Assembly (NCBI RefSeq): GCF_902652685.1
Contig: NZ_CACRUY010000032.1
Coordinates: 1-61,990 of the forward strand
DNA: 61,990 nt
Direction: 5' to 3'
Source: Mycobacterium sp. Marseille-P9652
Lineage (GTDB): Bacteria > Actinomycetota > Actinomycetes > Mycobacteriales > Mycobacteriaceae
Under the pieces are notes generated by a model that saw only the letters and a list, made by a program, of their open reading frames with translations, did not search any database and was not told the origin of the DNA. Shown here piece after piece: positions 32,611 through 34,946 of this stretch; within the stretch, counting starts at the first letter, position 1, and every line of letters starts with the position of its first letter. The position numbers and the translations under genes were made by a program.

Positions 32611-33902
32611 GCGGGCCGGTGCGATACCCGCCCGGCGAGGCCTTGCTCGCGTTGCATCGGCGGCGCGGCCCCGTCATCGATTCCGGCCTGGGGCGGCACG
32701 GCTACACCTACCTGCTGGGGCCCGAGGCGAACAAGTTCGTGTTCGCCAACGCCGACGCGTTCAGCTGGCGCGAGACGTTTCAGAACCTGGCCATCGCCGA
32801 CGGCCCCACCGCGCTGATCGTCAGCGACGGCGACGATCACCGGCGCCGCCGCAGCGTCGTGGCTCCGGGGCTGCGCCACCGGCAGATCCAGGACTATGTC
32901 GCCACGATGGTGTCCACCATCGACGGCGTGATCGACGGGTGGCGGCCCGGCGATCGGCTGGACGTCTACCAGGAGTGCCGCTCGGCGGTGCGGTGCAGCA
33001 CCGCCGAGAGCCTGTTCGGCCCACGCCTCGCCGCGCATTCCGACTTCCTCGGCGAGCAGTTGCAGCCGCTGCTGGACCTGACGCACCGGCTCCCGCAGGT
33101 GGTGGCGCTCGAGCGGCGGGTCCGCTCCCCCGGCTGGCGGCGGGCGACGGCCGCCCGCAGGCGCATCGACGAGGTGGTCGACGCCGCGATCGACGAGGCT
33201 CGACGCGCCCCGCGGCAAGACGACCACATGCTGACCATGCTCATCGAGGGCCGCGGCGACGAGGGTTACGCCCTGAGCGACAACGAGATCCGAGACGAGG
33301 TCGTCTCGCTGATCACCGCGGGCTACGAGACAACCAGCGGCGCGCTGGCGTGGGCGGTCCACTCGCTGCTCTCGTACCCCGGGGCCTGGGACACCGCCGC
33401 CGACGAGGTGCGCCGCGTGCTCGGTGGGCGCCCGCCCGCCGCGGGTGACCTGCCGGCGCTGACGTACATGAACGGCGTCGTCCACGAGACGCTGCGGTTG
33501 TATCCGCCCGGCGTCATCTCGGCCCGCCGGGTGATGCGCGACCTGTCGTTCGACGGGCGCCGCATCCGGGCAGGCCGGCTGCTCATCTTCAGCCCCTACG
33601 TCACCCACCGGCTGCCCGAGCTGTGGCCGGAACCGACCGCATTCCGCCCGCGGCGCTGGGACCCCGAGGCACCCGGGTACCGGAAGCCCGCCCCGCACGA
33701 GTTCATCCCGTTCAGCGGCGGGCTGCACCGGTGTATCGGGTCGGTCATGGCCACCACCGAGATGACCGTCATGTTGGCCCGGCTGCTCGCGCGGACCACG
33801 TTGCGGTTGCCGCCTCAGCGCATCCGCGCCGCCAACGTCGCCGCGCTGCGCCCCAAACCCGGGCTGACCGTCGAGGTCGCCGGCTCAACGCCAGCGCAGT
33901 AG
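32607..33902 (+). CDS. cyp139: cytochrome P450, CYP139 family
   Basis: A 431-aa soluble bacterial P450. The heme loop is FSGGLHRCIG with the thiolate Cys376. The I-helix oxygen-activation motif is AGYETT (238-243) and the K-helix pair is ETLR (294-297). Position next to pks11 equals Rv1666c (cyp139A1). It likely hydroxylates or couples the polyketide product; no ferredoxin gene is nearby. GTG 32607 overlaps the hydrolase stop. Its 3' end converges with the type III PKS gene and overlaps it by 18 bp. Confidence 0.92.
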   Translation: MSGPVRYPPGEALLALHRRRGPVIDSGLGRHGYTYLLGPEANKFVFANADAFSWRETFQNLAIADGPTALIVSDGDDHRRRRSVVAPGLRHRQIQDYVATMVSTIDGVIDGWRPGDRLDVYQECRSAVRCSTAESLFGPRLAAHSDFLGEQLQPLLDLTHRLPQVVALERRVRSPGWRRATAARRRIDEVVDAAIDEARRAPRQDDHMLTMLIEGRGDEGYALSDNEIRDEVVSLITAGYETTSGALAWAVHSLLSYPGAWDTAADEVRRVLGGRPPAAGDLPALTYMNGVVHETLRLYPPGVISARRVMRDLSFDGRRIRAGRLLIFSPYVTHRLPELWPEPTAFRPRRWDPEAPGYRKPAPHEFIPFSGGLHRCIGSVMATTEMTVMLARLLARTTLRLPPQRIRAANVAALRPKPGLTVEVAGSTPAQ

Positions 33903-34946
33903 CACGAGCTCCGAAGAGAATCCCGGTCCCATCGCCAGCATCAGGCCGGGGCTCCCGCTGGGCGGACGCTTGGCGATGGTGTCGCGCAGGATGTGCAGCA
34001 CCGACGCCGAGGACAGGTTGCCGATCTCGCCCAGCGAGCGCCAGGTCAGGTCGAGCGCGTCCGGCGGCAGATCGAGAGTGTTGCTGATCGCGTTGATCTC
34101 CTTGGGACTGCCCGGATGGCTCACCCACGCGCCGATGTCGTCCTTGGTCAGCCCGTGTGCGGCGAGGAACCCGGTGACGTCACCGGCGAGGTGGCGCTCG
34201 ATGACGTCGGTGAGCTCTGGGGACAGCACGAGCTGCAACCCCGAGGCACCCACGTTCATGCCCATGATGTGCAGCGAGTCCGGGTAGAGGCGGCTGCGGG
34301 AGTCGAGGACGTCGGGTCCGGTGGGGCGAAGCTCCTCGGCGCGGCGGTCCCCGACCGCCACGACCGCCGCGGCACCGTCCCCGAACAAGGCGCTTCCCAC
34401 GAGGCCCGACACCGTCGGCTTGACCGCCGGGTAGGTCAGCGAGCACAGCTCGACCGCAACGAGGACCGCGACACCATTCGGCGCACCGCGCAGGTAGTCG
34501 TGCAGGCGGGCCACCCCGGCGGCCCCGGCCGCGGCGGCGAGCCCGAACAGCGGCACTCGGCGCACGTCGGGCCGCAAGCCGAGCCTTCCGACGATCCTGG
34601 CGTCCAGCGACGGGACGGCGACGCCGGTGACCGTCGTCGTCGCGATCATGTCGACGTTCTCCGGCCGCAGGCCGGCCTCGTCGAGCGCGCCGAGCAGGGC
34701 CTCGCAGCCGAGGTCGACGGCCTGCTCGATGAAGATCTCGTTGGCATCGCTGAAGTCTGTGAGCGAGGCGTAACGCTCGAGCGGCAGGACGAAGTGGCGG
34801 CTGTTCACCTTGGCGGCGGCGTGCAGGCGCCGGACGATCTGCTCGTGCTCTTTCAGACCGGGGAATTCGACGAATTGGTCGGTGATTTCGCTCTGGCTGT
34901 AACGGTGCGGTGGGAACGCACCGAACACACCGGCAACAACACTCAT
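33885..34946 (-). CDS. pks11: type III polyketide synthase (pks11 position) lacking the catalytic Cys
   Basis: A 353-aa chalcone-synthase-like protein. His277 (SHPG) and Asn310 (GEIGNLSS) of the Cys-His-Asn triad and the GPGF loop near the C-terminus are present. The nucleophile is absent: residue 138 is Ala (GLAAAAG, codon at 34533-34535), where its paralogue at 50762 has Cys138 (GLGCVAG). The frame is otherwise intact and as long as family members. It cannot act as a normal condensing enzyme; decarboxylation, a partner-subunit role or decay are possible. An own promoter may lie upstream. Confidence 0.93.
   Translation of the reverse strand: MSVVAGVFGAFPPHRYSQSEITDQFVEFPGLKEHEQIVRRLHAAAKVNSRHFVLPLERYASLTDFSDANEIFIEQAVDLGCEALLGALDEAGLRPENVDMIATTTVTGVAVPSLDARIVGRLGLRPDVRRVPLFGLAAAAGAAGVARLHDYLRGAPNGVAVLVAVELCSLTYPAVKPTVSGLVGSALFGDGAAAVVAVGDRRAEELRPTGPDVLDSRSRLYPDSLHIMGMNVGASGLQLVLSPELTDVIERHLAGDVTGFLAAHGLTKDDIGAWVSHPGSPKEINAISNTLDLPPDALDLTWRSLGEIGNLSSASVLHILRDTIAKRPPSGSPGLMLAMGPGFSSELVLLRWR

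What the first reader, a model, noticed from the sequence alone, without database searches (positions are those of the whole stretch)
33885..34946. Type III PKS that has lost its catalytic cysteine but nothing else
The pks11-position protein reads GLAAAAG where its paralogue 16 kb away reads GLGCVAG, so Cys138 is Ala. I checked the codon (GCC on the minus strand, 34533-34535). His277, Asn310, the GPGF loop and the full 353-aa length are kept. This is not how random decay looks. It resembles the Cys-less chain-length-factor partners and decarboxylating relatives of ketosynthases, which I do not know to be described for type III PKSs. A heterodimer of Cys-less Pks11 with Cys-bearing Pks10 is a testable model.
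Basis: partly seen in the sequence, partly recalled or inferred. Interest (0 to 1): 0.85.

Follow-up and report, generated by a model that had tools for sequence, protein, structure and literature searches.

The report
Mycobacterial polyketide enzyme missing its cysteine
One mycobacterial lineage carries a full-length copy of a lipid-making enzyme whose essential cysteine has become alanine; it most likely lost its normal reaction recently, and whether the protein still does something useful is open.

Summary
The Pks11-position gene (33885-34946, minus) encodes 353 residues with Ala (GCC, 34535-34533) in place of catalytic Cys138. His277, Asn310 and GPGF are kept. "Nothing else lost" is wrong: Gly137, Trp230, Gly280, Val283 and Glu299 are also changed, each invariant in the other 110 distinct Pks11 proteins read. 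Six such departures compare with 1.1 expected for the branch length, and four lie within 6 residues of the triad. The Ala is private: 110 of 110 others have Cys. Terminal-branch dN/dS is 0.065, like the background, but the branch is long, and a recent phase without constraint (dS about 0.01-0.02) also fits. Pks11 is missing or frameshifted in three other genomes that keep pks9, and has a triad change in one more; Pks10 of this genome looks intact. Best reading: a recently condensation-dead Pks11, backed up by Pks10, at the start of decay. A retained pseudoenzyme (Pks10 partner or malonyl-CoA decarboxylase) is not excluded. The cluster does hold a Cys-less ketosynthase, but it is Pks9, with Gln.

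The parts
33885..34946 (-). pks11-position gene, 353 aa, type III PKS homologue without the nucleophile Cys
   Evidence: 77-87% identical to the other Pks11
34533..34535 (-). codon 138, GCC = Ala (Cys in 110 of 110 other distinct Pks11)
34536..34538 (-). codon 137, GCC = Ala (Gly in 110 of 110 others); together with codon 138 three base differences from GGC TGC within 4 adjacent bases
34116..34118 (-). catalytic His277, kept
34107..34109 (-). Gly280 -> Ser in the HPGGPK loop
34098..34100 (-). Val283 -> Glu in the same loop
34257..34259 (-). Trp230 -> Met
34050..34052 (-). Glu299 -> Asp
34017..34019 (-). catalytic Asn310, kept
50762..51832 (-). pks10, Cys-bearing paralogue (73% identical), 1 departure at 223 invariant columns
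44353..50730 (-). pks7, type I PKS (docking, KS with Cys, AT, DH, ER-like, KR, ACP), open frame
38046..44351 (-). pks8(/17), type I PKS with the same kinds of domains, open frame
35089..38049 (-). pks9, KS-AT-ACP protein whose KS has Gln for Cys (DSGQSS), as in the 19 relatives aligned (DSGQSS or DCGQSS)
35184..35185 (-). site between pks9 residues 955 and 956 where the window lacks 46 alignment columns of a conserved C-terminal stretch
32511..33902 (+). convergent cytochrome P450 gene, as described beside the cluster in M. marinum
   Evidence: PMC5916927
30077..31849 (+). ABC transporter ATPase, also part of the described neighbourhood
   Evidence: PMC5916927

Best explanation
This is the Pks11 of one mycobacterial lineage, recently made unable to do normal chain-building condensation by loss of its Cys nucleophile, and now in the first stage of decay. 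Mechanism: Cys138 is the site where the acyl starter and the growing chain are held. Without it the starter cannot be loaded in the normal way, while His277/Asn310 could still bind and decarboxylate (methyl)malonyl-CoA. Pks10, intact and 73% identical, presumably covers whatever shared product is needed, so the loss was tolerated. Shown here: the Ala, its uniqueness among the sequences read, the extra changes around the active site, the intact-looking Pks10, and the absence or damage of Pks11 in a few other genomes. Inferred: inactivity, back-up by Pks10, recency (neutral phase of dS about 0.01, 1-2% of the branch), and that 137/138 changed in one multi-base event.
For: Ala138 in 1 of 111 distinct Pks11 proteins. 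Six departures at sites invariant in the other 110, against 1.08 expected from 40 departures over the other terminal branches (Poisson P 0.0009; 0.005 if 137/138 are one event). Same-genome Pks10 has 1 of 223 against 11 of 210 for Pks11 (Fisher P 0.002), while in the 19 relatives the two genes have nearly equal sums (34 and 35). With codons 137/138 set aside, a recent neutral phase of dS about 0.007-0.012 is the joint best fit. Pks11 can be lost: of 94 genomes with a near-full-length Pks9 match of 60% or more in the listed rows (own included; contig-end fragments G266 and G059 left out), 89 have a Pks11 of 76% or more and G026 has a more distant one with Cys. Of the other 4, G188 and G341 show none after pks9 and G247 has a frameshift; G134 has an N at its deletion junction and is probably an assembly gap. 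One further Pks11 (L240, genome G139) has Asn310 -> Asp with Cys kept. Cys164 mutants of chalcone synthase made no naringenin (passages of PMC6274091).
Against: No stop, frameshift or indel in the window's gene. Omega on the branch is 0.065, not different from the background 0.056 (2dlnL 0.39), and omega = 1 over the whole branch is rejected (2dlnL 127). With codons 137/138 included, invariant sites ask for a longer neutral phase (dS at least about 0.016) than variable sites allow (at most about 0.014); with them removed the conflict is mild (3.1-5.0), and at the highest background rate tried for invariant sites (0.01) no neutral phase is needed at all (2dlnL 1.95). The departures cluster at the triad (4 of 6 against 19 of 98 sites, P 0.012), which fits release of catalysis alone better than release of the whole protein. 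Intact Pks11 is by far the commoner state (90 of 94 above), so loss is uncommon, and 13 of the 102 genomes with Pks11 have no listed full-length Pks9, not followed up.
Confidence: 0.56

Rival explanations
1. A retained pseudoenzyme: Cys-less Pks11 stays folded and dimeric and serves Pks10, as a mixed-dimer partner shaping its cavity or as a malonyl/methylmalonyl-CoA decarboxylase, by analogy with chain-length factors and PqsB.
For: Full-length frame and low omega. Changes cluster at the triad while variable sites stay constrained. His277 and Asn310 kept. Chalcone synthase C164A only modestly lost malonyl-CoA decarboxylation (passages of PMC6274091). PqsBC is a heterodimer with the active-site Cys on PqsC (passages of PMC6204780); that PqsB lacks it, and the chain-length-factor analogy, are recalled.
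Against: Only one genome has it among those read, so long conservation of the Cys-less state cannot be shown. His-loop changes Gly280Ser and Val283Glu may harm the decarboxylase too. The cluster already has a Gln-type KS in Pks9. No oligomer data.
Confidence: 0.2
2. Still a synthase: chain extension goes on without an enzyme-bound thioester, with CoA-bound intermediates, as in the Cys160 -> Ala or Ser mutants of DpgA, which still formed some product.
For: DpgA is the best NCBIfam match (E 1.9e-45; 155 bits, below its cut-off of 425). DpgA Cys160 mutants were not completely dead (passages of PMC6274091). Phe52 and Tyr59, needed for tetraketide output in MMAR_2474 (PMC5916927), are present.
Against: Chalcone synthase Cys mutants made no product. 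Loss of a residue kept in 110 of 110 relatives would normally cost rate. Gly137 beside it is changed as well.
Confidence: 0.1
3. Sequencing or assembly artefact in a GC-rich run of a 128-contig draft genome.
For: Only one genome. The three base differences lie within 4 adjacent bases in GC-rich sequence. A relative (G134) shows an N at a deletion in this gene, so the pks10/pks11 pair may assemble badly.
Against: Substitutions rather than indels. No N in the window. Other unusual changes lie elsewhere in the gene (230, 280, 283, 299). Pks10 of the same genome has GLGC, so it is no source of the motif.
Confidence: 0.07

Closest known systems
Pks11 of M. tuberculosis (PDB 4jao series) and MMAR_2474 of M. 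marinum
   Same: Same family and length, His and Asn of the triad, GPGF; same kind of neighbourhood as described for M. marinum (two type III genes flanking type I genes, then P450 and ABC transporter); Phe52 and Tyr59 as in MMAR_2474
   Different: Those have Cys138 and make methylated pyrones, resorcinols or phloroglucinols; this one has Ala138, Ala137, Met230, Ser280, Glu283
Pks10 (paralogue 16 kb away)
   Same: 73% identical, same cluster and strand
   Different: Cys kept; 1 departure at 223 invariant columns
Gln-type loading ketosynthases (Pks9 in this cluster; class name recalled)
   Same: Ketosynthase relative without the nucleophile Cys
   Different: Pks9 is a type I KS with Gln in 20 of 20 aligned sequences; the type III protein has Ala, in one genome
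Chain-length factor of type II PKS; PqsB of PqsBC (largely recalled)
   Same: Cys-less subunits beside Cys-bearing ones
   Different: Conserved over families with heterodimers shown; neither is shown here
Rice OsCHS19/26/27/31
   Same: Natural chalcone-synthase family members lacking triad residues
   Different: They lack more than one triad residue and many pocket residues; the authors did not expect them to be functional (passages of PMC7312121)

Membership tests
Type III polyketide synthase (Pks11 orthologue by descent) | Chalcone/stilbene synthase N and C domains | tested here: met
   Pfam 66.1 and 50.8 bits, both above cut-off
Type III polyketide synthase (Pks11 orthologue by descent) | Catalytic Cys | tested here: not met
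   Ala138. So filed only as a homologue, not as a competent type III PKS
Type III polyketide synthase (Pks11 orthologue by descent) | Catalytic His and Asn, GPGF loop | tested here: met
   His277, Asn310, GPGF
Type III polyketide synthase (Pks11 orthologue by descent) | Last gene of a one-strand pks10-7-8-9-11 cluster | tested here: met
   Same order on one strand in 19 of 19 relatives compared
KSQ-type decarboxylating ketosynthase | Gln in place of Cys | tested here: not met
   Ala; Pks9 has the Gln
KSQ-type decarboxylating ketosynthase | Decarboxylation of malonyl-type substrates | not testable with these tools
   needs an assay
Cys-less heterodimer subunit (CLF-like / PqsB-like) | Cys-less state conserved over a clade | tested here: not met
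   1 of 111 distinct Pks11; close sister strains were not available
Cys-less heterodimer subunit (CLF-like / PqsB-like) | Stable complex with a Cys-bearing paralogue | not testable with these tools
   Pks10 lies on the same strand in the same cluster, no more
Pseudogene | Stop, frameshift or truncation | tested here: not met
   353-aa open frame
Pseudogene | Relaxed selection since the lesion | tested here: inconclusive
   Whole-branch omega 0.065; neutral phase of dS about 0.01 allowed; excess at invariant sites

The most novel reading that the evidence does not exclude
A natural type III PKS pseudoenzyme: Cys-less Pks11 has given up condensation, is held by selection on its fold, and works as the non-catalytic (or decarboxylating) half of a Pks10-Pks11 mixed dimer, a type III counterpart of the type II KS/chain-length-factor pair.
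Probability: 0.14. Interest if true: 0.75.

Novelty: new variant of a known kind. Interest (0 to 1): 0.33.

Why it matters
If it were a kept pseudoenzyme it would be the first non-catalytic partner among type III PKS known to me, and would extend the KS/CLF principle to the simplest PKS class. Searches of the open library turned up no such report: 0 papers; 1 paper, listing only; 63 papers, 15 listed, passages of two read; 7 papers listed; passages of two, and sections of a third, read. Most subscription journals are not in that library. If it is early decay, as I think likelier, it shows that Pks11 can be given up in some lineages, here beside an intact-looking Pks10, which bears on how the two enzymes of this cluster divide their work.

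Tried and rejected
Considered and rejected: (a) Frameshifted or truncated pseudogene: no lesion found. (b) Replacement from afar: the protein groups with L004 (genome G195) inside Pks11 (support 99), and Pks10 is nearest to the same genome among the 19 compared; pks7, pks8 and pks9 are nearer to other relatives, so mosaic exchange among mycobacteria was not excluded. (c) Conserved Cys-less clade: none seen. All 102 Pks11 hits of 76% identity or more among 396 genus genomes were read, as were 80 named loci. Pks11 below 76% overlap Pks10 in identity in a capped list and were not sought apart from G026. (d) Gene conversion from Pks10: Pks10 has GLGC. (e) A wider class of Cys-less type III PKS: 1 of 78 read across the phylum, with Ser not Ala, and one other match, at 36%, among 198 genomes of its order. 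(f) The G134 copy as a true deletion: it has an N at the junction and its Pks10 also lacks a middle part. A search centred on G240 drew the same genomes; one search was an empty script. No structure prediction was run: a solved relative covers the whole length, and the tool's description promises no coordinates for distance work.

The invariant-site statistic chooses sites on the other sequences and treats branches as independent. In the codon models the other branch lengths were held fixed, and one search tested 14 of 50 tips.

Full report
What is there. The gene at 33885-34946 (minus) is a clean 353-codon frame that starts with ATG. Pfam places it with chalcone/stilbene synthases, and the nearest solved structure is M. 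tuberculosis Pks11 over the whole length. It lies last in a same-strand cluster: pks10 (50762-51832), pks7 (44353-50730), pks8 (38046-44351), pks9 (35089-38049), pks11. The same order on one strand holds in 19 of 19 relatives compared. A convergent P450 gene and an ABC transporter gene follow. This matches the '2x type III pks' cluster described for M. marinum (PMC5916927: abstract, first of three parts of Results, mutagenesis section and Discussion read). Gene names pks7-pks11 are given by analogy with M. tuberculosis and M. marinum, partly from recall. Residue 138 is Ala, codon GCC at 34535-34533.

Is the Ala shared? Not in anything read. In one search, 112 of 114 aligned Pks11 and Pks10 copies have Cys; the two with Ala are the window's own gene, present as window and L001. 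After adding the other 72 Pks11 hits of the genus search, 161 loci gave 111 distinct Pks11 proteins: 110 Cys and 1 Ala (many genomes are present twice because two collections overlap). Across the phylum, 78 of 89 listed PF00195 places were read: 77 Cys and 1 Ser.

Is it the only loss? No. In a leave-one-out count over the 111 proteins, the window departs at six sites that are invariant in the other 110: G137A, C138A, W230M, G280S, V283E, E299D. The other 110 have 40 departures over a total terminal branch length of 5.58, so 1.08 would be expected on the window's branch of 0.150 (P 0.0009; 0.005 with 137/138 as one event; the next highest counts are 4, 4 and 3). Four of the six lie within 6 residues of the triad, where 19 of the 98 invariant sites lie (P 0.012; 3 of 5 with 137/138 as one, P 0.043). 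Against 19 relatives, Pks11 departs at 11 of 210 invariant columns and Pks10 of the same genome at 1 of 223. The 19 relatives have 0-5 in Pks11 and 0-6 in Pks10, with sums of 34 and 35.

Selection. A codon model on 50 Pks11 sequences gives a background omega of 0.056 and 0.065 on the window branch. The difference is nil (2dlnL 0.39), and omega = 1 is rejected (2dlnL 127; 14 of 50 tips were tested as foreground, 0.025-0.115 among them). This looks like proof of constraint, but the branch is long (dS about 0.65-0.8). A model with an old constrained and a recent neutral part is best with no neutral part and allows about 2-3% of the branch (2dlnL 2.3 at 2%, 4.1 at 3%). Split by site class, invariant sites ask for a neutral dS of about 0.016 or more and variable sites allow at most about 0.014. 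With codons 137 and 138 set aside, because they may have changed in one event, the two meet at dS about 0.007-0.012 with a mild conflict of 3.1-5.0; at the highest background rate tried for invariant sites, no neutral phase is needed (2dlnL 1.95). So recent decay is compatible but not proven. There is also a hint, not more, that it is catalysis rather than the fold that has been released.

Pks11 in other lineages. Of 94 genomes with a near-full-length Pks9 match of 60% or more in the listed rows (own included; two contig-end fragments left out), 89 have a Pks11 of 76% or more, and G026 has a more distant one with Cys. G188 and G341 have none in the stretch after pks9. G247 has frameshifts in both pks9 and pks11, in a one-contig genome where indel errors are possible. 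G134 shows a deletion with an N at its junction, and its pks10 also lacks a middle part, so it is probably an assembly gap. One further Pks11 (L240, genome G139, a fragmented genome without a listed full-length Pks9) has Asn310 changed to Asp with Cys kept. Pks10 relatives of 82-87% identity without stops exist in G188, G341, G247 and G026; G188 and G341 have a second one of 80-81%. I conclude that Pks11 can be given up in some lineages; in most it is kept.

How it might work. In chalcone synthase, Cys164 to Ala, Ser or Asp abolished naringenin production, while C164A and C164S only modestly affected malonyl-CoA decarboxylation, which needs His and Asn (passages of PMC6274091). DpgA Cys160 mutants still made some product (same source). 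On these grounds the window protein should be unable to load a starter in the normal way, and might keep decarboxylation or a weak CoA-bound route. The two His-loop changes make even that uncertain. Phe52 and Tyr59, needed for tetraketides in MMAR_2474, are present.

Wider cluster. Pks9 has a Gln-type KS (DSGQSS in 18 and DCGQSS in 2 of 20 aligned sequences), so a Cys-less ketosynthase is a normal part of this cluster, but in Pks9. In the window Pks9 lacks 46 alignment columns just before its C-terminal tail; nine columns invariant in the 19 relatives fall in this gap. Whether this is linked to the Pks11 change is unknown.

Verdict. It is best read as a recent loss of condensation in one of two sister enzymes. 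The heterodimer idea is bold and testable, but nothing here supports it beyond low omega, the kept His/Asn and the clustering of changes.

Noticed in passing
L294:7864-8928 (-), L256 (genome G645): A 354-aa type III PKS homologue with Ser at the nucleophile position (LFGSASLGG) and His, Asn and GPGF kept; neighbours include SURF1, TetR, AurF-like, dapB and pnp genes. One other match (36%) among 198 genomes of its order.
   Followed up: partly
window 35089-38049: Pks9 KS carries Gln for Cys (KSQ-like, DSGQSS or DCGQSS in 20 of 20 aligned sequences), suggesting a loading or decarboxylating module. The one paper found for pks7/8/9 with ketosynthase is on a fungus (listing only).
   Followed up: partly
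window 35184-35185: Pks9 of the window lacks 46 alignment columns of a conserved C-terminal stretch (docking region by recall); nine columns there are invariant in the 19 relatives.
   Followed up: partly
L174-L245, Pks11 position 52: Residue 52 is Phe in 34 and Leu in 38 of 72 Pks11 loci, Tyr59 in all 72. F52L abolished tetraketide products in MMAR_2474 (PMC5916927), so natural Pks11 may fall into two product classes.
   Followed up: no
L240 (genome G139): Pks11 with Asn310 -> Asp and GPGF -> GPGL but Cys kept: another change in the triad, in a fragmented 3.4-Mb genome.
   Followed up: partly
L299 (genome G247): Frameshifts in pks9 (before its ACP region) and in pks11 (just after the cysteine motif) of one genome; decay or indel errors.
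   Followed up: partly
L295 (genome G134): pks10 and pks11 both lack a middle stretch, and pks11 has an N at the junction; probably a gap caused by the two paralogues in assembly.
   Followed up: partly
G195 pks8 (L125): The relative nearest in Pks11 and Pks10 has a pks8 only 63% identical to the window's, where 12 of the 19 relatives reach 73-77%; pks8 may have been exchanged in that genome.
   Followed up: no
window 34527-34538: The new codons 137-140 (GCC GCC GCG GCC) contain the palindrome GCCGCGGC, so a templated multi-base mutation is conceivable for the 137/138 change (inference).
   Followed up: no
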